Made by a program: the position numbers and the translations under genes. The notes beneath the pieces are model-generated. The model worked only from the letters and a program-made list of their open reading frames with translations, ran no database searches and was not told the DNA's origin. A stretch of 64,000 nucleotides of DNA, from NCBI GenBank assembly GCA_002050355.1, contig MWYY01000052.1:1-64000 (forward strand), given 5' to 3'. This stretch comes from Acidobacteria bacterium 28-9 (GTDB lineage Bacteria > Acidobacteriota > Blastocatellia > Pyrinomonadales > Pyrinomonadaceae). Below are positions 52,594 through 64,000 of the stretch, one piece after another; position 1 is the stretch's first letter, and the number at the start of each line of letters is the position of its first letter.

Positions 52594-53640
52594 TTATTTG
52601 AAAACCCCATCGCCCAAAAAATTTTCGCGCAAAAATTTAATCGTATCGTTGAGTGTTTCCTGTGGGTCGCGTGTCGTAAAGTTTAACTCTTCCGCCGCTT
52701 TGGACGAGTCGAAATACCAAAAATGCTCGCCCATCTCGACTTCGGATGCTTCAAACGGCGCGGTTTTATTGAAATTTTTATAAATCGAGTCGACAAAATT
52801 TGCGCCAATGACGGCGATGCTTTTCGGCATTTTCAGCATCGGCGCAGATACGCCTGATAATCTTTCAAGCCGTCCGAAAAATTGCGCAAAAGTCCAATTT
52901 GCCGCGCCAAGCAAGTATCTTTCCGTGTGTCTGCCTTTGTCCAAAGCATTTACAAATGCGTTTGCGGCGTCGCGCACGTCAACAAAATTCAAGCCGCCCG
53001 AAGGCATCGTCGGCAATTTTTTCGCCATAAAATCAAGCACGACTTTTGTCGAGCTAAGGCGCTCGTCGCCCGCTCCCAAAAGCAGCGACGGATTTAAGAT
53101 AACGAGCCGTTCGCCTTTGTCCCGGAAAGCGCCAAGGGCAGTTTTTTCCTGATAATATTTTGAAGCGTAATAAGCCCATTTCGTCAAAATTTTGACCGGC
53201 TGCGGGTAATTTTCATCCAAAATTTCTGGCGTCTCGGAGATTGCGCTCGTCCCGGAAGATGAGGCGAGAATGAAATTTTTCACGCCGTTCTCTTTTGCCG
53301 CTTCGCATAAAAGCCGCGTGCCTTCGACGTGAATTTTGTTCATCTGCGCCGCGCCTTCGTAGACAAACGAAACTTTTCCTGCCAGATGATAAACGGCTTC
53401 GACGTTTTTTGTCGCGCCGCTCACGTCTTCCCTTTTCGTTACCGAACCGGCAAACGCTTCGACGCCGCTGTCAGTCATCCATTCAGGAACGCTAGACGCC
53501 ATCACGCGCAAATTCTTCGCACCGGCGTCTAAGAATTGCCGAACAATATGTATGCCAAGAAAGCCTGTGCCGCCGGTAATTAAAATTTTACGCTCGGTTT
53601 TTATTAAAGCCTTCGATTTACTTTTCGTTTTTGTTGCCAT
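52594..53640 (-). CDS. SDR-family NAD-dependent epimerase/reductase
   Basis: 348 residues of the extended short-chain dehydrogenase type (3-beta-HSD/epimerase-like): TGGTGFLGIHIVRQFL at 19-34, HLAGKVSFVYEGA, and YYASKYYQEKTA with the active Tyr-x3-Lys near 156-160. The N-terminus is an unusual lysine-rich stretch (MATKTKSKSKALIKTERK). The gene is two bases downstream of the large acyl-processing enzyme and in the same direction, so it likely reduces or modifies the product of that enzyme. Confidence 0.8.
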   Translation of the reverse strand: MATKTKSKSKALIKTERKILITGGTGFLGIHIVRQFLDAGAKNLRVMASSVPEWMTDSGVEAFAGSVTKREDVSGATKNVEAVYHLAGKVSFVYEGAAQMNKIHVEGTRLLCEAAKENGVKNFILASSSGTSAISETPEILDENYPQPVKILTKWAYYASKYYQEKTALGAFRDKGERLVILNPSLLLGAGDERLSSTKVVLDFMAKKLPTMPSGGLNFVDVRDAANAFVNALDKGRHTERYLLGAANWTFAQFFGRLERLSGVSAPMLKMPKSIAVIGANFVDSIYKNFNKTAPFEASEVEMGEHFWYFDSSKAAEELNFTTRDPQETLNDTIKFLRENFLGDGVFK

Positions 53641-53642
53641 TT

Positions 53643-56600
53643 TTAGTCGTCGATGACCGCTTCTCTCTTGCGAGTTTTACGCCGTTCGGCGCGCCACTGT
53701 TTTCTTATACCAGCGACATGGAATTTGTCTTTTTTGCCGTTGCTGCCGTTATCGTCGCGCATATTTTCAATTTCAAACTGGACGCGCGCGGCAATCAAAC
53801 GATAGGCTTCGGTTTTCGGGACGCCTTTTGTCATCTCGAAAAGTTCGTCGTATTCAAGAAATCGCCCGACTTTTGCGCCGATGCTGGCACCGATGCTGCT
53901 CGCTTTCGGAATCGTCGCACCTTTCGGAAAGGCTTCGTATGTTCCCCAAATATAAACGGGCAGAATGCCGGTTTTGTTGTTTAGCGCGAGGTAACCGATG
54001 ATTGGTTTGAATTCGTTTATCTCGCCCGTCTGCGAACGCCCGCCTTCGGGGAAAATCAGTGTGTTGTAGCCTTCATTTAGAATCTGCGTTACGTGGCGCA
54101 GCGATTGGCGCAAACTTCCCGTTCTTTCAATCGGGACGAGCGTCGTGAAATTATTCATATACGCGCGTTTGTATTTCGTATCGAACCAGTAATCGGCAGC
54201 GGCGACGGCGACGGTTTGCTCCGCCACATCGTCGCCAAGCGCGTATTTTACGAGTCCCATATCGAGGTGCGAAGCGTGGTTTGCCGCGACGATAAAATTC
54301 GTGTGCGGCGGAACGTTTCCGACGCCTTCGATGTTGGTCTTCAGAATGTCGTTGTAAAGCGTGTTTTGCGCGAGGCTGACAACCTGATTTCCGACGCGGC
54401 GGACAATCGACGGAATAAAAAGCTCTTCGTCTTTTTTCTCTTCGGTTTTCGGCTCGTCAACAATCTTTTTCGATTTATCGACGCGCTGTGCGGCGGTCAT
54501 TAATTCTCGAATGGTTTCGACTTCGTTCAAAGTATCGGGCGAGACAACGCGCCCGCCCGCGTCTTCGACTGCCGCTTGCAATTCAACAAACATTAAACTG
54601 TCAAAACCCAAATCCGCGAGTTTCGTTTCCAGAGCGACATCGGAAAGCGGGCGATTCGTTACGTTTGCGACAATTTTTCTGAGCCAAATTACGTTGTCGT
54701 CGTTTTTTGCGTTTGAATCTATGCGCGTTTTCTTTTTTGATTTATCTTCCAAATTTCGCAGCATTTCGACAACTTCGGGACGTTTTACCTTGCGCGTTGC
54801 TGTGCGCGGCAACTCAAACGGCGTAAAATGCACGACTTTGACGCGCTTGAAAAATGGCAGAGCGGATGAAACTTCACGGAAATGCGCTTCGACTTTGCGA
54901 TTTGTATCCGCACGAGAAAGCGCAATGTCGTATTCGTAATCCGGCACAACCAGCACGGCAATTTTTTCGCCGCCTTCGGCATCGGGCAAACCGGTTACCG
55001 ACATTTCTTTGACAAAAGGCGATTTACCGTATAAATCTTCAATCTCGTCGGGGTAAATATTTTTGCCGTTGCTGTCAATTATTACGTCTTTCGAGCGCCC
55101 GACAATATACAAATTTCCGTCCTCGTCGAGTCTGCCAAGATCGCCCGTTTTCAACCAGCGGTCTTGCAAAACTTCGGCGGTCGCCTCCTCGTTATTAAAA
55201 TAACCGAGCATCACATTTTGACCGCGCGCTATAACTTCGCCGACGCCGTTTTCGTCCGGCTCGTTGATTTTGACTTCGACGCCCGAAAGCGGTTTGCCGA
55301 CACTGCCGCGGAGCAATTTGTTGCCCGGACGCGCGACAGTCAAAACCGGCGCCGATTCGGTTAGCCCATAGCCTTCGAGAACGGTAAAACCAAGCCCGTG
55401 TAAATCCTTCTGTACTTTTTCGCTCAATGCGGAACCGCCTGAAATCAAATAGCGCATCCGTCCGCCCAAGCCTTGATGTATCGGGAAGAACACAATCGGT
55501 CCAAAATTGAACGGCGTGTTGTCGCGCAGCCACGCGTTAAAATCAATTATGTTGTCGGCAAGGTCGGCAAACCAATCACCGCGCTCGCGCAGACGAGTTT
55601 TTATTCGCCGGTGCAGCATTTCCCACAGAGCGGGAACGCCGACCATTCCGGTAACGTGACCGTTTTCGATGGCGTATGAAAGCTCCTCGCTGCTCAATTC
55701 TTCCAAATAAGTAATTTGCGTCCCATTAGCAAACGGCGTCAAAAATCCGGCGGAAAATTCAAACGTATGATGAAGCGGCAAAACCGACAAAACGCCGTCG
55801 CTAATGCTCATATCGAGAACCGAGCCCAGCATCGAAACCATATTGACGAAATTTTTGTGCGAGAGCATCACGGCTTTCGGTGTACCGGTCGTCCCGCTCG
55901 TAAAAATTAAAGAAGCGACGTTGTTTGCCAGAACTTTTGGCGGAAGCAACGCAAGTCGTTCAGCTTCTTCGCTTTCGGTCGGCATTTCAAAAACATTTGT
56001 GAAATCGTAAATTGGAATTTTTAGATTATGTTTTTCAAGTTCGCTGGCTAAGTCTGGAGTTTCATCTTCGAGCTTCGGGCTAATCAAAATCATTGACGCT
56101 TCGCTCGCCTTCGCAAATTTAGCGATATCTTCCGCGCTCGAACTCGGGTCGAGCGGCACGGCAACCGCGCCGGTTTTCAAAATGCCGAAATATGCCAAGC
56201 CCCATTCGGGCATATTGTGTGAAAAAAGTATGACTTTCTGTGTCGGCGTAAGTCCCTTTTCCGCCAAAAATCCGGCAGCGCGTAAAGTTAATTCTCTGAC
56301 ATCTTCATAAGTATATTGCTCTTTTTTGCCGCCCCGCTCAATTCGCATCGCCACGCGCGTCGGAAAACGTTTTGTCGCCGTGTCGAACAAATCAATCAAA
56401 TCCTTATAAGTGTGCGAGCGTTTTTCCTGCAATTTAAGGTCTTCTTCCAATTGCGGCAAAACCCATTTTCTGAGTCCCGGAAAATGCACGTTCAGCCAGT
56501 AATCATACCAATCCAGTTTTTCGGGATACCACGGCAGCAGATTTTTCTCGTTATCCTTAATCAATGAATGCAAAGCCCGCGTATTGTCGGCGCGGTAATT

Positions 56601-58076
56601 GTATTCGTTGTCAACTATGAACGGTTTGAACATATCAAACGCCATTTTCGTTTCTTCCGTAGTGCGCTCGAAATTTTCAAACGATTTCTGCACATCCGAA
56701 ACAATATCGCCGATGCGCCCGCCGCCCCAATTCGGTTTGGCTTTATCCAATAAATTAGTCGCGCCTTTTGCCAATTTATTGAGCATCGGCGCGCTGGTTA
56801 ACTCATAAGTTTTCTGCGAAACAGGTATCGCTTCAATCATTCCCGCGACGCGATTGACAAGTTTGTTGCCTGTTTCCTTGTCTTTATAATGCTGCCGCTT
56901 ATAAAGCCCGACAAGACCGACCATTCGTTTCATATCGTTCGGATTCGTGTCGCCCGAACAGACCTGGAAAACGAGCGGGGGCTTGTCGTCAACTAGAGCA
57001 TTCATCGCCGCTTGCAGCATCGCGCCCGCCACCAAATCAACCGGAATAATGTCTAAAACCAACTTCTCGTTTACCGGAAAAATCGGCTGACCGCGCAAGG
57101 CAATCAAAATCAGCGGCGCGGTTGTCGTAAAACCTTCGTTCCAGCCCGGAAACGGATAATTAACCGCCGATTCGACAACCGACGGACGCAGCAGAATTTT
57201 TATAACATCGTCTTGCTGGGCGACGATTTGTTCGGCGAGCGATTTTGAATAAGTATAAATATTTGTCCAACCCCAGAATGCGGCGCGCTTTTCGCCAAGT
57301 TCAGTGGTGCGTTCACGAATCCAGACTTTTCGCTCGCGCAGCATCGCCAAACTCAAAGCGTCTTCGTCGTCCGCGTCGCGTCCCTCGTCCAACAAACGCT
57401 CGCGCGCGGCTTCGCGGAACTTCGCAATCTGCATCGCGTCCTTCGCTTCTTCACGCGCCTGCTCGCTCAATCTAGCGCAATCGGCAATCTCCTGATTGAC
57501 ATCAAATTTCGTCCCAATCAACTCATCTTTACGCGGGAAATAACCGACAACCGGCTCATTTTCCCAAACCGTGCCGTTCTTCTTTCCGACAACAAAACAA
57601 GTCGAAACGTGAACGAGAGCCGGACGCTTCATCATCCGCGCCAATTTCAAAACATTATTTGTGCCGACGACATTAGTCCTCAACGCGCTTTCAAGCGGTG
57701 GATTAAACGTAACATTGCCCGCCGAATTGATAACGATGTCGCAATCATTCATTATTTCCCGCGCTTCCGTTTCCGCTAATCCGAGAAATTCATTGCCGAC
57801 ATCACCATTGACGGGAACGACTTTTTCACGAATAAATTTCTCAAACTCGTCACCGTATTTCTCGCGCAACGGGTCAAACGTAGGCGAAGTTACAACGCTC
57901 GTCCAAAAACGAATCTCCGATTCGCGCGCGTCTCTCGCCCGCACGGTCGCATAAACTCGCCCGACATCAGGAAAATTATGCAGCAGCATCGAAAGCGTAA
58001 CCTTGCCGACAAAGCCCGTGCCGCCGATAAAGAAAATCTTTTTATTTTTGAAAATTTCGGTTGGTGATAATTTCAT
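53643..58076 (-). CDS. Acyl reductase / AMP-dependent ligase / carrier / acyltransferase fusion
   Basis: 1477 residues with four parts. (1) About 10-500: fatty acyl reductase-type (NAD_binding_4/male-sterility) domain, GGTGFVGK (18-25) and YSKSLAE near 274. (2) About 560-1110: acyl-adenylating enzyme, SLIFTSGTTGTPKAVMLSHKN near 725, GYGLTESAP and KTGDLGRLDEDGNLYIVGR. (3) About 1130-1200: carrier domain with the phosphopantetheine Ser in LGFDSLMFVEL (about 1159). (4) About 1230-1440: PlsC-type acyltransferase, NHASHLDMG near 1262 and FPEGGRSQTGEINEFKP near 1345. It may activate a fatty acid, hold it on the carrier, reduce it and transfer it. From memory this recalls the multifunctional ElbD enzyme of bacterial ether-lipid synthesis; the functional link is inference. 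Confidence 0.85.
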   Translation of the reverse strand: MKLSPTEIFKNKKIFFIGGTGFVGKVTLSMLLHNFPDVGRVYATVRARDARESEIRFWTSVVTSPTFDPLREKYGDEFEKFIREKVVPVNGDVGNEFLGLAETEAREIMNDCDIVINSAGNVTFNPPLESALRTNVVGTNNVLKLARMMKRPALVHVSTCFVVGKKNGTVWENEPVVGYFPRKDELIGTKFDVNQEIADCARLSEQAREEAKDAMQIAKFREAARERLLDEGRDADDEDALSLAMLRERKVWIRERTTELGEKRAAFWGWTNIYTYSKSLAEQIVAQQDDVIKILLRPSVVESAVNYPFPGWNEGFTTTAPLILIALRGQPIFPVNEKLVLDIIPVDLVAGAMLQAAMNALVDDKPPLVFQVCSGDTNPNDMKRMVGLVGLYKRQHYKDKETGNKLVNRVAGMIEAIPVSQKTYELTSAPMLNKLAKGATNLLDKAKPNWGGGRIGDIVSDVQKSFENFERTTEETKMAFDMFKPFIVDNEYNYRADNTRALHSLIKDNEKNLLPWYPEKLDWYDYWLNVHFPGLRKWVLPQLEEDLKLQEKRSHTYKDLIDLFDTATKRFPTRVAMRIERGGKKEQYTYEDVRELTLRAAGFLAEKGLTPTQKVILFSHNMPEWGLAYFGILKTGAVAVPLDPSSSAEDIAKFAKASEASMILISPKLEDETPDLASELEKHNLKIPIYDFTNVFEMPTESEEAERLALLPPKVLANNVASLIFTSGTTGTPKAVMLSHKNFVNMVSMLGSVLDMSISDGVLSVLPLHHTFEFSAGFLTPFANGTQITYLEELSSEELSYAIENGHVTGMVGVPALWEMLHRRIKTRLRERGDWFADLADNIIDFNAWLRDNTPFNFGPIVFFPIHQGLGGRMRYLISGGSALSEKVQKDLHGLGFTVLEGYGLTESAPVLTVARPGNKLLRGSVGKPLSGVEVKINEPDENGVGEVIARGQNVMLGYFNNEEATAEVLQDRWLKTGDLGRLDEDGNLYIVGRSKDVIIDSNGKNIYPDEIEDLYGKSPFVKEMSVTGLPDAEGGEKIAVLVVPDYEYDIALSRADTNRKVEAHFREVSSALPFFKRVKVVHFTPFELPRTATRKVKRPEVVEMLRNLEDKSKKKTRIDSNAKNDDNVIWLRKIVANVTNRPLSDVALETKLADLGFDSLMFVELQAAVEDAGGRVVSPDTLNEVETIRELMTAAQRVDKSKKIVDEPKTEEKKDEELFIPSIVRRVGNQVVSLAQNTLYNDILKTNIEGVGNVPPHTNFIVAANHASHLDMGLVKYALGDDVAEQTVAVAAADYWFDTKYKRAYMNNFTTLVPIERTGSLRQSLRHVTQILNEGYNTLIFPEGGRSQTGEINEFKPIIGYLALNNKTGILPVYIWGTYEAFPKGATIPKASSIGASIGAKVGRFLEYDELFEMTKGVPKTEAYRLIAARVQFEIENMRDDNGSNGKKDKFHVAGIRKQWRAERRKTRKREAVIDD

Positions 58077-58088
58077 TTTCGTAAAAAA

Positions 58089-58533
58089 CTATGTAATTTC
58101 TTCGATTATTGGTTGATGGCAGGTTGCAATATCAATAATGTTGTTCAAACAAACAATTCCAAAATGCTTAATTTTATTTTCTTGAGTATGTTCAATGATA
58201 AAACTATCAACTGCAACCGAAACATAATCTAAAAATTCTCGATTTTGAGTAAACACGCAATAAATTTCCTGTAAAATTTTCATAGTCTTCCCAAACTGTA
58301 AAAGATTCATTTCTGACTGAATATGAAATATATTCATCAAAAATAATCTTGTATTTTTTACAAGGTTTTTTAGGTGTGATTATTTCGGAATTTATCTCGT
58401 TATTTTCGTTTCGACCGTCAGAACATCCAGAACTTGCCTCACTTACCCGCAAGACAAGTTCGAGGTCATTTCCCTCAATCAATTTATCTAAATATAGATA
58501 ATCGTGATTACTTATTTGGTCGAACAAATTCAT
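58089..58533 (-). pseudogene. Frameshifted small protein gene of unknown function
   Basis: Two overlapping frames read as one protein if a single base is moved. The first (from MNLFDQISNHDYLYLD at 58533) runs to RVYSKSR, and the second frame continues EFLDYVSVAVDSF...KHFGIVCLNNIIDIATCHQPIIEE to a stop at 58089. The shift falls near 58225-58245, close to a run of five A's on the plus strand. Either the gene is broken or the sequence has an indel. Family unknown. It lies between the fusion enzyme and the first toxin gene. Confidence 0.65.
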
Positions 58534-58535
58534 AT

Positions 58536-58880
58536 TTACAAACTCAAAACCAATCGCAAACCTTCTTCAATCTTTTCCATTTTTTTATTCGGCATGGTCG
58601 CAACAAATTCCGTCAGCAAACTTTTATCAATCGTAATCACCTGCGAAACATTCACGACCGAATCAACCGGTAAACGACTTGCTCGCGCCGTAATCGAAAC
58701 ATTTCCCGGCGCTTTGGCTAATTCCAGATTTTTCGTAATAACGGCGACAACGACGGTTTGAATTTTGCTTTGGTTAAATGAATCCGATTGCACAACCAAA
58801 ACCGGACGACGAAAGCCCGGACTTGAGCCGACAGGTTCTGGCAAATCCGCCCACCAAATTTCGCCGCGCCCGATTACCAT
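58536..58880 (-). CDS. MazF/PemK-type endoribonuclease toxin (first copy)
   Basis: 114 residues. GRGEIWWADLPEPVGSSPGFRRPVLVVQSDSFN (4-36) is the MazF start with the GxxRPVxVV core and the following VITKNLELAKAPGNV loop. MazF toxins cut RNA at short sequence motifs. Its ATG lies within the antitoxin gene, overlapping it by seven bases, the usual operon form. A second, different MazF is 337 bases away. Confidence 0.9.
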   Translation of the reverse strand: MVIGRGEIWWADLPEPVGSSPGFRRPVLVVQSDSFNQSKIQTVVVAVITKNLELAKAPGNVSITARASRLPVDSVVNVSQVITIDKSLLTEFVATMPNKKMEKIEEGLRLVLSL

Positions 58881-59110
58881 TTTTCTTTCAACAAACTCGT
58901 TGCTTGCGCTTTCAGCAAATCATTATCCAGATTTGAAGCCGCGTTTTCATAAACTTCATTGAGCTTCGCCGTTACGTCTTCGACGTGATTTTCCTTGAGA
59001 TAAATTTTTACCGCTTCGGTGAAAAGTTCACTGCGTGAAATTTTTAATTTACGCGCCAAACCCTCCGCTTGCTCAAAGACATTGTTCGGAATTGAAATTG
59101 CCGTTTTCAT
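58874..59110 (-). CDS. Ribbon-helix-helix antitoxin (first copy)
   Basis: 78 residues; MKTAISIPNNVFEQAEGLARKLKISRSELFTEAVKIYLKE is a classic RHH DNA-binding domain, and the C-terminal part should bind MazF. ATG at 59110 was preferred to upstream in-frame starts because the predicted promoter (-35 at 59141-59146, -10 at 59118-59123) places the transcript start almost at this ATG. Autoregulation through the palindrome at 59118-59135 is likely. Confidence 0.88.
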   Translation of the reverse strand: MKTAISIPNNVFEQAEGLARKLKISRSELFTEAVKIYLKENHVEDVTAKLNEVYENAASNLDNDLLKAQATSLLKEKW

Positions 59111-59117
59111 ACTTTGA

Positions 59118-59146
59118 GTATAACCGAAGTTATACCGCTTTGTTAA
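59118..59146 (-). promoter_or_regulatory. Promoter and operator of the first MazF operon
   Basis: On the minus strand TTAACA (59141-59146), 17 bases, TTATAC (59118-59123). A perfect palindrome GTATAAC-CGAA-GTTATAC (59118-59135) covers the -10, fitting an antitoxin-bound operator. The -10 is seven bases from the antitoxin ATG, so the mRNA is probably leaderless. The -35 overlaps the stop of the larA remnant at 59143. Confidence 0.7.
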
Positions 59147-59212
59147 TCCGTTACACTGCAAAACTCGATAATGGGCTGATGCAGCATCGTAATCTCCGCA
59201 TTTCTACCTATA
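59143..59212 (-). pseudogene. Remnant of the 3' end of a larA-like gene
   Basis: Translated leftwards it reads [21 protein letters not shown] then TAA, against [21 protein letters not shown] at the end of the intact gene at 60409-62010. The two DNA stretches align without gaps over about 67 bases with about 10 differences, most of them silent. Only this 3' end exists; the MazF stop is four bases before it begins. Confidence 0.85.
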
Positions 59213-59216
59213 AATT

Positions 59217-59537
59217 TTATAAATCAAGTTGTGTTTTTACTGCTTTCTCAATCTTCTCGACATCTGCTTTCGATAAATGTCCGGCTTTATTCAGCAATCG
59301 CAACTTGCTCACGGTCGTCAGTTGGTCGGCGAGAGCTTTGGCTTGTTTTCCGCCGAATGAGACGTAAGCCTCGCTCGGATAGAGTTTGTCGATTTTACTG
59401 GAAAGCGGCACGACTTGGACGCGGTTGAGATGTTTGTTTGAAGCGTCGTTGCTCAGAACGACGGCGGGACGTTGTTTTGTGATTTCACCTCCGACGGACG
59501 GCTCGAAGTTCACCCACCAAACTTCACCACGTTTCAT
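59217..59537 (-). CDS. MazF/PemK-type endoribonuclease toxin (second copy)
   Basis: 106 residues: MKRGEVWWVNFEPSVGGEITKQRPAVVLSNDASN, with QRPAVVLSND in place, and VVPLSSKIDKLYPSEAYV. It differs strongly from the first MazF, so the two are not a recent duplication. ATG lies 14 bases inside the antitoxin gene. Four bases after its stop begins the larA 3' remnant. Confidence 0.9.
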   Translation of the reverse strand: MKRGEVWWVNFEPSVGGEITKQRPAVVLSNDASNKHLNRVQVVPLSSKIDKLYPSEAYVSFGGKQAKALADQLTTVSKLRLLNKAGHLSKADVEKIEKAVKTQLDL

Positions 59538-59754
59538 TATTCACGTCTCCGATTGTCGCGTCCGACCATTCCAGTGCTTCTGCCTCCCGCGCTTCGTCCT
59601 GCGCCATTTCTTTATAAGCCGATTCTAAATCTTCATTCAAAACGTGCGGGCGCACCAGAACTTCAATAAACTGGCTGATTTTCCCGCGCCCGACTGCCCT
59701 TTGCAGACCTTCATAAACGCGCTCGTCAATCGTTATTGTTAATTTCTTTTGCAT
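59524..59754 (-). CDS. MazE-type antitoxin (second copy)
   Basis: 76 residues; KKLTITIDERVYEGLQRAVGRGKISQFIEVLVRPHV is a short DNA-binding start like those of ribbon-helix-helix antitoxins paired with MazF, and the acidic C-terminus (KEMAQDEAREAEALEWSDATIGDV) should wrap the toxin. The gene overlaps mazF2 by 14 bases. The promoter at 59763-59791 makes its message near-leaderless. Confidence 0.88.
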   Translation of the reverse strand: MQKKLTITIDERVYEGLQRAVGRGKISQFIEVLVRPHVLNEDLESAYKEMAQDEAREAEALEWSDATIGDVNNETW

Positions 59755-59762
59755 AGCGATTT

Positions 59763-59791
59763 ATTATACGTATTCTGCACGTATAATCCAA
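59763..59791 (-). promoter_or_regulatory. Promoter and operator of the second MazF operon
   Basis: Minus strand TTGGAT (59786-59791), 17 bases, TATAAT (59763-59768). A perfect nine-base palindrome ATTATACGT-ATTCTGC-ACGTATAAT (59763-59787) overlaps both boxes. The -10 lies eight bases from the antitoxin ATG at 59754, again predicting a leaderless or nearly leaderless mRNA. Confidence 0.75.
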
Positions 59792-59793
59792 TC

Positions 59794-60372
59794 TCACTTC
59801 GATTTTCCTTTCTTCTCTTCAACAAATCCAATTTTGCGTTTCAAAAATTTCGGGTCGCGTTTAATTTCTCCCAACAGTTGAAAAACTACGCGAAAGTCTT
59901 GATTATACTTGTAGGCAACTTTTTCCAGTTGTTCAATGCGGTCTGCCAAATCTTGATGCAATGCCAAAATTGAGCGCATTTTCACAAAGGCTCTGACAAC
60001 TTTAATGCTTGCTTCTATCGCCGTTGCGCTGTTTAAGACACTTGCCAACATTACCGCGCCGTGTTCGGTAAAAACGAATGGAGCATATTTGCTGTATTTA
60101 CCGCGTTTTGATTTTCCGGTGTCTAAGGTCACAATCTGTGACCTTAGAGATTCGATGTGCCGTGTTTCTTCAAGCGACAGTTCAAACATAAAATCTAACG
60201 GAAAGCGATGCAAATTGCGCCGAACAGCTTGTTTTAGAACTCTAGTTTCGACTTGATAAACTTCCGCCAAATCACTGTCGAGCATTACTTTTTGACCGCG
60301 AATAAGATAAATCTTTTCTTCGATTCCTTCGATAACTGTCAAATTCGCTTCCTGATTTTCTTTATTCGCCAT
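59794..60372 (-). CDS. ORF6N domain protein
   Basis: 192 residues. KIYLIRGQKVMLDSDLAEVYQVETRVLKQAVRRNLHRFPLDFMFEL (about 20-65) is the ORF6N (KilA-N-like) domain, seen in phage and mobile-element proteins and in chromosomal islands; it may bind DNA. FVFTEHGAVMLASVLNSATAIEASIKVVRAFVKM follows, and a lysine-rich tail ends it. It lies between larA and the second MazF pair, inside the stretch bounded by the two larA 3' ends. Confidence 0.85.
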   Translation of the reverse strand: MANKENQEANLTVIEGIEEKIYLIRGQKVMLDSDLAEVYQVETRVLKQAVRRNLHRFPLDFMFELSLEETRHIESLRSQIVTLDTGKSKRGKYSKYAPFVFTEHGAVMLASVLNSATAIEASIKVVRAFVKMRSILALHQDLADRIEQLEKVAYKYNQDFRVVFQLLGEIKRDPKFLKRKIGFVEEKKGKSK

Positions 60373-60408: not shown

Positions 60409-62010
60409 CTAATCCGTCACATTACACAAACCGATAATCGGCTGATGCAGCATCGTAATCTCCGCGTTTCTGCCCATATACGAACGCGCTTGGGCAATCG
60501 CTTCGGTCATATTGTCGGCGCGTTCCCAGCCGAGCATTTCGGGGACGTGGGCATTTTCCGCACCGGCGACGATGACTTTGCCGACGTGCTGGCGACCGTT
60601 TTCGCCCCAATACCACATAAAAAACGGGTGCGCTCCGTGATAGGCGTTGCCGCGCCGATACATTTCGATATAGTTCGGATTCGTCGCAAATTCGCGCTCA
60701 TATTTTTCGCGCAGGTAGAAAGCGTCGCGCGATTCGGACAAAAGACGGTGGAAAAATTCGATATATGGCGCGTGATGATTATGGTCAAACTCGTCAAAAC
60801 ACGGATGAGAAACAATCATCACGCCGCCTTTCCGAATGAGCGGTTTATTGCGATACATATTGAAGTGATAGCCGAGAGCCATCACTTGAACGAGCAAAGG
60901 ATTGAGCGATGAATAGACGTTATACGGCGAAATGTCGGGAATGCCGGTAATCAAAATATCGCACTGACCTTTGACGGGAATTTCAAACTGCTGATAATTC
61001 TTTTCCAGAATTTTTTCGTGGACCGGCTCGGTTGCGCCCGCGTAACAGGCAATTAATTCGTATTGCGCGGGAATTTGATGCAAAAGTTTACGACGCGCAG
61101 CACGAGGTAGATTGCCGAAAGTCCGCTTCATCGCTTCCCATTTCATTCTGTCCATAAACGAAAATTCGTCTTCGTTGCGCGTCAGAATGTCGTAGCCGTC
61201 GCTAAACATTCGGCTGTTGAGCGCGGTTTCGATGTGAAAGACGTTGCAGTGTTCGTCAACTAATTTGCCGAGGCGATTGATTTTGTGATTGAGTTCCGAC
61301 GAAGACGGGTCCATATAAGAATCCGAATCGCGTATGGTCTGCGGTTCGTGATGCGCCCGCAGAGATTCGTAATCGCACAGCCCGACGGCGACCGATTTGT
61401 GTCCGCCGTTCATCGGAACGAAATTGATGTTGGCGTAAATCAGCAAATCGCTTTCGATGGCGCGTTTGTTGATGCGAAGCGGTTCGTCGTGGCGCGTGTG
61501 TCCGATGGTGACGAGATTTTCGTCGTCTTCGGCGTCGTGGTTGTAATATCTGTCCGGGTAAAATTCGTCAAAAATTTTCTTGCCGACCATTCGCTCCATT
61601 TCCCACGGCGTCATCCGGCGGTGCAATGAAATAGCGATTATCAAATGAATATCGTCCACGCCGTTTGCCGCGCACTGTTCCAAAATGACTTCGAGCATCG
61701 TCTGGCGCACGTCCGGCGTCTGCATAGGCGGCAGCGGCATCGAAATATCGTCAATCGCAATCGTCACGCGCATTCCCGGCTCAAGCTGCGCGTAAAGCGG
61801 TTTCGCGTCAATCGGATGATTAACCGCGTAACGAATCGCCGCTTCCCGATTCGGCAAGCCTTTTATCGGCGGATTCGGATAAATCACGCGCGTCCCCGTC
61901 GGCAAATCTTCGAGAATAAAATCCTCGCCAAACGGTATAATGCGCGGCGCGCTGTCGCGGTCAATGTAAACAATTGATTCGTGTGTTTTTCTGCGTAATT
62001 GCAAAGCCAT
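60409..62010 (-). CDS. LarA-like (DUF2088) racemase/epimerase family protein
   Basis: 533 residues related to the nickel-pincer lactate racemase Lar[23 protein letters not shown] (about 109-130) corresponds to the LarA DDxTRPxP block, [19 protein letters not shown] to the HR-x-T-x-x-E block, and [14 protein letters not shown] plus [23 protein letters not shown] to the ligand-binding residues. No larB, larC or larE homologue lies beside it, so the cofactor would have to be made elsewhere. Substrate unknown. Its 3' end exists a second time at 59143-59212. Confidence 0.82.
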
Positions 62011-62242: not shown

Positions 62243-62647
62243 CTATTTGCCGTAAGCACTCAAAAGAAGTTTGCCTTCGTAATCAATCAAACCGAATTTC
62301 ACGCGGTCTAAAAAACCTTGTCTGCCGAGAACATTGCGCGTGAACGATTCTTCTTTGGCAAAGAAAACTCTCGAAACGGTTTCGATTTCCAAAACTGATA
62401 AAACGATTTCGTGAGCGTAAGCGTCGAAATTTCCCGCCGCCGTATTAAAGCGTATAAATTCGCCGCCTTCGACATCTATGCCGAGCCTTTCCGCGTGTTT
62501 GCGCTCGAAGACGCAATCGGTCGCGCCGGTGTCGATTTTCGCTTCCAAATCAATCTGCCGTCCGCCGAAATGAAGGACGACTAAAACGGTGATGCCCGTT
62601 TTCAGCGTGTCGTATTCAAATACTTTGTCGAAGGAAACGGTTTCCAC
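62243..62647 (-). CDS. Retropepsin-like aspartic protease family protein
   Basis: 134 residues; LEAKIDTGATDCVFERKHAERLGIDV contains the catalytic Asp in DTGA (about residue 39), and NVLGRQGFLDRVKFGLIDYEGKLLLS matches the later hydrophobic strand. Single-domain proteins of this kind dimerise. Function here is unknown. The gene four bases upstream (DUF5678-like) forms an operon with it. Its 3' end is duplicated at 63009-63061. Confidence 0.8.
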   Translation of the reverse strand: METVSFDKVFEYDTLKTGITVLVVLHFGGRQIDLEAKIDTGATDCVFERKHAERLGIDVEGGEFIRFNTAAGNFDAYAHEIVLSVLEIETVSRVFFAKEESFTRNVLGRQGFLDRVKFGLIDYEGKLLLSAYGK

Positions 62648-62650
62648 CTT

Positions 62651-62998
62651 TTACCAACCTCCAACGTAATGTTTCGGTTCTTCGACGATATGATGAACGA
62701 AAGGCGATTTGATTCCCTGTTCGATTGCTTTGTAGTGAACTTCCAGCGCGTCTGTTCCGTGTGCGATGAGTTCGCCGCCTTCCAGACAAACCCATTGATT
62801 CATATATTCCGCGCTGTGTTCGTCGAGCCATTTTCGCGCTTTTTTGTATCGCTCAATCTGATATTTTTTCAGTTTTTCTTTATCTTCGTCTTTCGACTTT
62901 TTGCGTTTTTCCGCTTCATACCATTCGTCGAATTTTTCAAATTCTTCGGTCGGCAGTTGTAAAACAACTTGTTTAGCTTGTTCTAAATTCACTTGCAT
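62651..62998 (-). CDS. DUF5678-like small protein
   Basis: 115 residues. The C-terminal WLDEHSAEYMNQWVCLEGGELIAHGTDALEVHYKAIEQGIKSPFVHHIVEEPKHYVGGW fits DUF5678, a small domain often beside aspartic-protease-like genes; the N-terminal half is a charged helix. ATG at 62998 follows an AGGAGAGT ribosome-binding site. Coupled to the protease gene by a four-base gap. Confidence 0.75.
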   Translation of the reverse strand: MQVNLEQAKQVVLQLPTEEFEKFDEWYEAEKRKKSKDEDKEKLKKYQIERYKKARKWLDEHSAEYMNQWVCLEGGELIAHGTDALEVHYKAIEQGIKSPFVHHIVEEPKHYVGGW

Positions 62999-63008
62999 AA
63001 AGACTCTC

Positions 63009-63061
63009 CTATTCTCCGTCAGCACTCAAAAGCAGTTTGCCTTCGTAATTAATCAACCCAA
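63009..63061 (-). pseudogene. Remnant of the 3' end of an aspartic-protease gene
   Basis: Leftward translation gives GLINYEGKLLLSADGE then TAG, against GLIDYEGKLLLSAYGK at the end of the gene at 62243-62647. Only these last codons are present; upstream the sequence belongs to VapC. VapC's last residues and stop (63049) are read from this remnant in another frame. Confidence 0.8.
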
Positions 63062-63468
63062 GGATTTAAAACCCTAACTTGCGAATGCTGAAAGTTTTTG
63101 ACGTTTCGCGTAACGAAAATCATATCGTGTTCCAAAGCCGTCGCTTCTAAAAGCGAATTGAACGCCGGACGCACAATGCCTTTTCGTTCAAATTCGCCAT
63201 ACACTTTTCCCCAAACAGGAAATGTCTTTTCGGATAAGGGCAAGATTCGGCGGGAAAAACGCGCTTGTAATTGCTCCAGCCATTTTTCGAGTTCCGCTCT
63301 CTTTCTGCTTGATTCAAGTCTTGTGATTCCTTTCTTAATTTCGCCAAGGGTTAAAACGTTCAAATAAAGTTTCGATTCGTCCTGCGCGTCGAGCCATTCG
63401 AGAACTTTTTCGCTTGGTCTTTTTTGTTTCGGTTCGGAGATAATGCAGGTGTCGAGCAGAAAATTCAT
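63049..63468 (-). CDS. VapC-type PIN-domain toxin
   Basis: 139 residues: MNFLLDTCIISEPKQKRPSEKVLEWLDAQ (first Asp at 6), LGEIKKGITRLESSRKR (Glu about 43), then SLLEATALEHDMIFVTRNVKNFQHSQVRVLNPWVD (last Asp pocket). PIN toxins cleave RNA, often tRNA or rRNA. The start overlaps the antitoxin stop by four bases. The final VD and stop come from the protease remnant, so the native end was probably replaced. Confidence 0.92.
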   Translation of the reverse strand: MNFLLDTCIISEPKQKRPSEKVLEWLDAQDESKLYLNVLTLGEIKKGITRLESSRKRAELEKWLEQLQARFSRRILPLSEKTFPVWGKVYGEFERKGIVRPAFNSLLEATALEHDMIFVTRNVKNFQHSQVRVLNPWVD

Positions 63469-63828: not shown

Positions 63829-64000
63829 TCATTTCAAATTTAAAATCGCCCAATCGTGCTGCAGCGCTATTTGTTTCAGCCTGAAATCCGGATTAACCGC
63901 CGCTGGATGACCGACAATCGAGAGCATCGGCAAATCGGAAATGCTGTCGGAATAGGCATAGGAATCCGAAAGATTTATGCCTTCGCGCTCGGCGTATTCG
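63829..64000 (-). CDS. HAD-IB family hydrolase, C-terminal end (cut by window edge)
   Basis: The last 56 residues of a leftward gene entering from the right edge: ...NLSDSYAYSDSISDLPMLSIVGHPAAVNPDFRLKQIALQHDWAILNLK, stop at 63829. YSDSxSDLPML with GHPxAVNPDxxL is the C-terminal acidic motif IV region of SerB-like HAD-IB phosphatases. Which substrate is hydrolysed cannot be told from this fragment. Confidence 0.85.
   Translation of the reverse strand, partial: EYAEREGINLSDSYAYSDSISDLPMLSIVGHPAAVNPDFRLKQIALQHDWAILNLK

What the first reader, a model, noticed from the sequence alone, without database searches (positions are those of the whole stretch)
53643..58076. Four-activity acyl enzyme with an adjacent reductase: candidate lipid-modifying system
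Reductase, adenylating, carrier and PlsC domains in one chain would allow activation, loading, reduction and transfer of a fatty acyl group. Subdivision 4 Acidobacteria are known for iso-diabolic acid and ether-bound membrane lipids, and a multifunctional enzyme of similar make-up is involved in ether lipid formation in myxobacteria. The gene beside it (52594-53640) is an SDR that could act on the product. The order with the reductase first is notable.
Basis: partly seen in the sequence, partly recalled or inferred. Interest (0 to 1): 0.62.

Follow-up and report, generated by a model that had tools for sequence, protein, structure and literature searches.

The report
Acidobacterial ether-lipid operon (elbBCDE)
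The four-domain enzyme is real and is almost certainly the acidobacterial version of ElbD, the known main ether-lipid enzyme of myxobacteria; it sits in an operon whose least understood gene, elbC, turns out to be related to nickel-dependent lactate racemase.

Summary
Observation confirmed. One 1477-aa ORF (53643-58076, minus) carries reductase (FAR), adenylating (ACS), carrier (ACP) and PlsC acyltransferase (AT) domains, with catalytic motifs conserved in 51 orthologues. FAR-ACS-ACP-AT is the content of Myxococcus xanthus ElbD, and elb operon homologues in subdivision 4 acidobacteria were already reported (Sinninghe Damste 2018, cited in PMC10087280). 'Reductase first' is normal, and the neighbouring SDR is in the elbE position. 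HAD-unknown-ElbD-SDR is the M. xanthus elbB-C-D-E order; elbB and elbC lie upstream in 33 of 37 loci with enough flank. Added here: ElbC, 'unknown' in M. xanthus, is a single-histidine LarA-fold protein in these acidobacteria, present in all 21 sampled genomes with this ElbD. Three families carry elbB-elbC with a FAR not fused to the other domains. ElbC and its nickel-cofactor residues persist in four genomes lacking LarB, LarC and LarE, so its cofactor is open. Direct comparison with M. xanthus ElbD was not possible. Interest modest: a known system with one new testable question.

The parts
53643..58076 (-). elbD: 1477-aa FAR-ACS-ACP-AT protein
57018..58025 (-). fatty acyl reductase domain (NAD_binding_4; GGTGFVG, S158-T159, Y274xxxK278)
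56457..56678 (-). Sterile/FAR_C domain, weak (33.7 bits, cut-off 35.4)
54789..56387 (-). AMP-binding plus AMP-binding_C (acyl adenylating) domains
54498..54686 (-). acyl carrier domain, attachment serine S1160 in LGFDS
53946..54335 (-). PlsC-type acyltransferase domain (NHASHLD, FPEGGRS)
52594..53640 (-). elbE position: extended SDR (Epimerase/3Beta_HSD, HpnA-like below cut-off), 2 bp after elbD
   Evidence: downstream on the same strand in 34 of 38 loci with room
60409..62010 (-). elbC position: 533-aa LarA-fold protein (LarAH14/15/16 family); H130, D88, K205, H221 kept, H174 equivalent is N196
63829..64000 (-). elbB position: C-terminal part of a 225-aa HAD hydrolase; the gene continues to contig position 64506, outside the window
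58207..60372 (-). genes inserted between elbC and elbD: unknown ORF 58207-58533, PemK/MazF 58536-58880, PemK/MazF 59217-59537, ORF6N 59794-60372
62243..63468 (-). genes inserted between elbB and elbC: aspartyl-protease-like 62243-62647, DUF5678-like 62651-63025, PIN/VapC-like 63049-63468

Best explanation
This is the elbB-elbC-elbD-elbE operon of a Pyrinomonadaceae (subdivision 4) acidobacterium; it makes alkyl glycerol ether lipids. Shown here: the domains and their intact catalytic motifs, the conserved operon, and the link with ElbC. Inferred: the ACS domain activates a fatty acid (iso-C15/iso-C17, perhaps iso-diabolic acid) and loads it onto the carrier serine, and the FAR domain reduces it with NAD(P)H to the alcohol that becomes the alkyl chain. 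The PlsC domain attaches an acyl chain to a glycerol phosphate. ElbE (SDR) reduces a ketone or aldehyde intermediate and ElbB (HAD) removes a phosphate. Which protein forms the ether bond is not known; no assigned domain covers that step, and ElbC is the leading unassigned candidate.
For: Domain content matches M. xanthus ElbD, disruption of which strongly reduces alkyl and vinyl ether lipids (PMC9131029). Operon order HAD / unknown / ElbD / NAD epimerase matches elbB-C-D-E; elbB and elbC lie upstream in 33 of 37 loci and elbE downstream in 34 of 38. G267 has a compact version, elbB-elbC-elbD-elbE at L117 5795-13488. Catalytic motifs are kept in 51 clade A sequences. Phenotype: Pyrinomonas methylaliphatogenes has more than 40% ether analogues and membrane-spanning lipids (PMC4644332); genome G086 (3.8 Mb, G+C 0.594 at the locus), probably that species, has ElbD, ElbC and the SDR together. 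Three Chloracidobacterium genomes, recognised by their FMO protein, lack ElbC and ElbD. Subdivision 4 elb homologues were reported before. DUF2229, used as a marker for the anaerobic Ger route, is absent from this genome, and both FAD-oxidase_C proteins look GlcD-like rather than AGPS.
Against: No sequence of M. xanthus ElbB-E could be obtained, so orthology rests on domain type, order and literature. An ElbD homologue does not prove ether lipids: Pontiella has one and no ethers were detected (PMC11868695). Other Blastocatellia families mostly lack this ElbD, and from memory some of their cultures do make ethers. The host has no lipid data, and its genome is about 87% complete, so absences are weak. 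That Chloracidobacterium is the low-ether exception in subdivision 4 is from memory of Sinninghe Damste 2014, not read here.
Confidence: 0.78

Rival explanations
1. The enzyme makes fatty alcohols for another product (wax-type or other neutral lipids) and the operon is not for membrane ether phospholipids.
For: FAR plus acyl-activating domains are enough for fatty alcohol production; a version with FAR as a separate protein exists; no product is known for this organism.
Against: The gene order matches elbB-C-D-E, of which ElbD is genetically shown to be needed for ether lipids; P. methylaliphatogenes, a subdivision 4 relative, is rich in glyceryl ethers.
Confidence: 0.12
2. This is a separate family with the same domains as ElbD but a different role; the second acidobacterial family (about 30% identical, clade B) or a myxobacterial one is the true ElbD.
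For: Clade B proteins have the same four domains in the same order; the FAR domains of the two clades are clearly apart in the tree; M. xanthus ElbD could not be placed.
Against: Only the window's clade shows the M. xanthus order with HAD and unknown gene upstream and SDR downstream; in the clade B loci read no elbE match was found beside the gene, the order differs, and the ACS P-loop consensus is degenerate.
Confidence: 0.1

Closest known systems
ElbD and the elbA-E operon of Myxococcus xanthus
   Same: FAR, ACS, ACP and AGPAT-like AT in one protein; HAD gene and gene of unknown function upstream, NAD epimerase downstream (PMC9131029).
   Different: Host phylum; no elbA equivalent looked for; toxin and other small genes inserted within the operon here; no CarF-like desaturase found in this genome, though that search had no positive control.
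elb homologues of subdivision 4 Acidobacteria (Sinninghe Damste 2018) and ElbD-like sponge-symbiont clusters (PMC9426513)
   Same: Same phylum and domain set; the reported subdivision 4 set very probably includes relatives of this locus.
   Different: This particular genome; the passages read here do not connect elbC with LarA.
LarA-like proteins with a single catalytic histidine (PDB 9q3k, 9q3j)
   Same: ElbC model matches at Z 38.4, rmsd 2.5 over 456 residues, 25% identity; catalytic His, cofactor Lys and Ni-ligand His kept, second His replaced by Asn.
   Different: The R75 equivalent is not kept (Lys in those structures, Leu/Met here); linked to lipid genes rather than carbohydrate genes; kept in genomes without LarB/C/E.
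AGPS/FAR1/GNPAT ether-lipid pathway of animals (and MXAN_1676)
   Same: Uses FAR-type reductase and PlsC-type acyltransferase chemistry.
   Different: No AGPS-like gene was recognised in this genome.

Membership tests
ElbD | FAR, ACS, ACP and AGPAT-like AT domains in one chain, FAR at the N terminus | tested here: met
   ElbD make-up from PMC9131029
ElbD | catalytic residues of all four domains present | tested here: met
ElbD | sequence orthology to M. xanthus ElbD | not tested
   no myxobacterial sequence could be reached: the single genome-contig scan found only acidobacteria and whole-genome searches were centred on the window's phylum
ElbD | needed for alkyl/vinyl ether lipids | not testable with these tools
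   requires deletion or expression with lipid analysis
elb operon | HAD hydrolase, unknown-function gene, ElbD, NAD epimerase in that order on one strand | tested here: met
   in the window the genes are separated by inserted genes
elb operon | the protein in the elbC position is homologous to M. xanthus ElbC | not tested
   M. xanthus ElbC sequence not available; described only as of unknown function
NPN-dependent LarA enzymes | LarA fold | tested here: met
   AlphaFold model pLDDT 85; best matches 9q3k and 9q3j, then classic LarA
NPN-dependent LarA enzymes | residues D72, K184, H200 and catalytic H108 of LarA | tested here: met
   D88, K205, H221, H130 in 54 of 54 (alignment to 5huq)
NPN-dependent LarA enzymes | R75 and second catalytic histidine H174 of LarA | tested here: not met
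   R75 position is Leu/Met/other; H174 position is Asn in 50 of 54
NPN-dependent LarA enzymes | host makes the NPN cofactor (LarB, LarC, LarE) | tested here: inconclusive
   present in the window's genome, not found in G141, G189, G227 and G283, which still have ElbC

The most novel reading that the evidence does not exclude
ElbC, a LarA-fold protein, is the missing ether-forming enzyme of the elb pathway and takes the place of AGPS, either by a hidden-redox step at glycerol C2 with a nickel-pincer-like cofactor or by cofactor-free chemistry in lineages that lost LarB/C/E.
Probability: 0.1. Interest if true: 0.75.

Novelty: new member of a known kind. Interest (0 to 1): 0.36.

Why it matters
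Bacterial alkyl ether lipids underlie branched GDGT climate proxies, and the reactions of the elb pathway are largely uncharacterised. The locus adds a well-conserved acidobacterial operon and points to two handles: the version in which the FAR is a separate protein, and ElbC, a LarA-like protein of unknown reaction tied to the FAR enzyme. If ElbC forms the ether bond, a standing question about aerobic bacterial ether lipids becomes directly testable. As it stands, the enzyme itself belongs to a known system.

Tried and rejected
Getting a myxobacterial or other non-acidobacterial ElbD: the genome-contig scan returned only acidobacteria; the plasmid search gave AMP-binding proteins without the FAR part from Ilyobacter, Rubrobacter and Fusobacterium, without elb neighbours in the two loci read, and no ElbC. 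AGPS in the window's genome: two FAD-oxidase_C proteins, both with EHGIG and no HHHG motif, so judged GlcD-like; the motif criterion is from memory. Ger by DUF2229: none, not an exhaustive test. CarF by PF10520: none, but no control genome rang either. The nickel hidden-redox idea for ElbC was my first favourite and was lowered after the cofactor genes proved absent from four ElbC-bearing genomes. Original papers (Lorenzen 2014, Sinninghe Damste 2014 and 2018, Sahonero-Canavesi 2022) were not read: three look-ups by identifier found nothing held. First alignment A1 contained a stray 3-base reference and was replaced by A2.

Full report
What is there. The ORF at 53643-58076 on the minus strand encodes 1477 aa. 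Pfam gives, from the N terminus, NAD_binding_4, a weak Sterile (FAR_C) domain, AMP-binding with its C-terminal domain, PP-binding and a PlsC-type acyltransferase. The SDR gene at 52594-53640 starts 2 bp after the stop codon on the same strand; it is an extended SDR, nearest HpnA in NCBIfam but well below that model's cut-off. The window lies in contig C106 of a 3.65-Mb, about 87% complete genome; the nearest relatives are Pyrinomonadaceae and other Blastocatellia, that is subdivision 4.

Are the catalytic sites intact. In an alignment of 51 distinct full-length sequences of its own group (clade A, window included), the FAR glycine motif, the S-T pair and YxxxK, the ACS P-loop, A5, A7, A8 and A10 motifs, the carrier serine and the PlsC NHxxxxD and FPEG motifs are kept.

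Comparison with ElbD. A review in the library describes M. xanthus ElbD as an N-terminal FAR1-like domain with ACS, ACP and AGPAT-like domains, in a five-gene operon elbA-E, with elbB a HAD phosphohydrolase, elbC unknown and elbE an NAD-dependent epimerase (PMC9131029). Disrupting elbD strongly reduced alkyl and vinyl ether lipids; disrupting elbE also lowered them. The reductase-first order is therefore the normal one. PMC10087280 states that several subdivision 4 genomes contain homologues of the entire elb operon, citing Sinninghe Damste 2018, and PMC11868695 that only some subdivision 4 genomes do. ElbD-like clusters are reported from acidobacterial sponge symbionts (PMC9426513).

The rest of the operon. 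Clustering the neighbours of the orthologues showed a recurring HAD protein of about 224 aa and a 533-aa protein upstream, and the SDR downstream, all on the same strand. With at least 8 kb of upstream sequence, elbC is present in 36 of 37 loci and elbB in 33; with 8 kb downstream, elbE is present in 34 of 38. G267 has all four genes packed head to tail (L117 5795-13488). In the window elbC lies at 60409-62010, and reading past the window end finds elbB at contig position 63829-64506, a HAD protein by Pfam. Between the elb genes sit PemK/MazF-like, ORF6N, PIN and aspartyl-protease-like genes.

ElbC is LarA-like. The window protein exceeds the NCBIfam cut-off for LarAH14/15/16 (803 against 740 bits). 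An AlphaFold model (pLDDT 85) matches the single-histidine LarA-like structures 9q3k and 9q3j at Z 38.4 and 35.6 and classic LarA (5huq) at Z 29.1. Aligned with LarA 5huq, the catalytic H108, D72, the cofactor lysine K184 and the nickel ligand H200 correspond to H130, D88, K205 and H221, invariant in 54 of 54 sequences; H174 is Asn in 50 of 54 and R75 is not kept. Published work notes that LarAH groups lacking H174 have unknown reactions (PMC12611868; PMC7583248), that a Frankia LarAH14 was inactive on the substrates tried, and that groups 12, 13 and 16 were set aside because their residues were not conserved.

Link with ElbD. In 297 acidobacterial genomes, all 21 with a clade A ElbD have ElbC at 66% identity or more; three others have it at 57-59%. 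Fisher's test gives p = 2.5e-29, but 19 of the 21 are one family, so this is not 21 independent events. Those three other genomes (G095, G131, G188) have elbB-elbC-FAR, without ACS, ACP or AT in the FAR protein; G095 and G188 also have elbE directly after it, while no elbE match was found beside the FAR gene in G131. Their FAR proteins group with clade A rather than clade B (100/99; the root is drawn at the midpoint). A lipid kinase of the DagK/YegS family lies near these operons and next to at least one clade B gene.

A second family. Twelve genomes of other acidobacterial families have full-length homologues at 31-33% (clade B). Their consensus ACS P-loop is degenerate, and their neighbourhoods differ.

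The cofactor puzzle. LarC is widespread in Blastocatellia, with or without ElbC, but was not found in G141, G189, G227 and G283 (97-98% complete, G283 in two contigs), and LarB and LarE above cut-off are missing from the same four. All four keep ElbC with the lysine and histidine positions unchanged. Either ElbC does not need the nickel-pincer cofactor, or these bacteria obtain it elsewhere. This lowers the hypothesis that ElbC works by nickel-pincer hydride chemistry.

Phenotype. P. methylaliphatogenes has more than 40% ether analogues and membrane-spanning lipids (PMC4644332). Three genomes with the FMO protein, hence Chloracidobacterium, lack ElbC and ElbD.

Verdict. The locus is an elb-type ether-lipid operon: a new member of a known kind. 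The order of reactions and the ether-forming step are inferred, not shown. What is added is the identity of ElbC as a LarA-fold protein in these acidobacteria, its strict association with ElbD, the operon with a separate FAR, and the cofactor puzzle. I did not see the ElbC-LarA link in the papers searched, but most subscription papers are not held.

Noticed in passing
58207-60372 and 62243-63468: PemK/MazF-like (two), ORF6N, PIN and aspartyl-protease-like genes are inserted between elb genes; across relatives the elbC-elbD gap varies from overlap to about 5 kb and the elbD-elbE gap to about 8.8 kb, as if the operon tolerates or attracts insertions.
   Followed up: partly
L118 4372-7110 (G000:C36): A paralogue without the reductase: AMP-binding, PP-binding and PlsC domains in a 912-aa protein.
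   Followed up: partly
L104-L115: A second full-length FAR-ACS-ACP-AT family in other acidobacterial families, about 30% identical to the window protein, with a degenerate ACS P-loop consensus; some have a DagK-like gene, a HAD gene, a zinc alcohol dehydrogenase or a LarA-like gene beside them.
   Followed up: partly
L151, L152, L153: elbB-elbC-FAR operons in which the FAR is a separate protein and a DagK/YegS-type lipid kinase lies nearby; elbE follows in L151 and L153.
   Followed up: partly
G141, G189, G227, G283, G338, G339: LarB, LarC and LarE are missing together from these Pyrinomonadaceae genomes, a joint loss of nickel-pincer cofactor synthesis.
   Followed up: partly
G000:C26:6627-7697 (L119): A stand-alone NAD_binding_4 reductase of 356 aa, far from ElbD in the FAR tree.
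   Followed up: no
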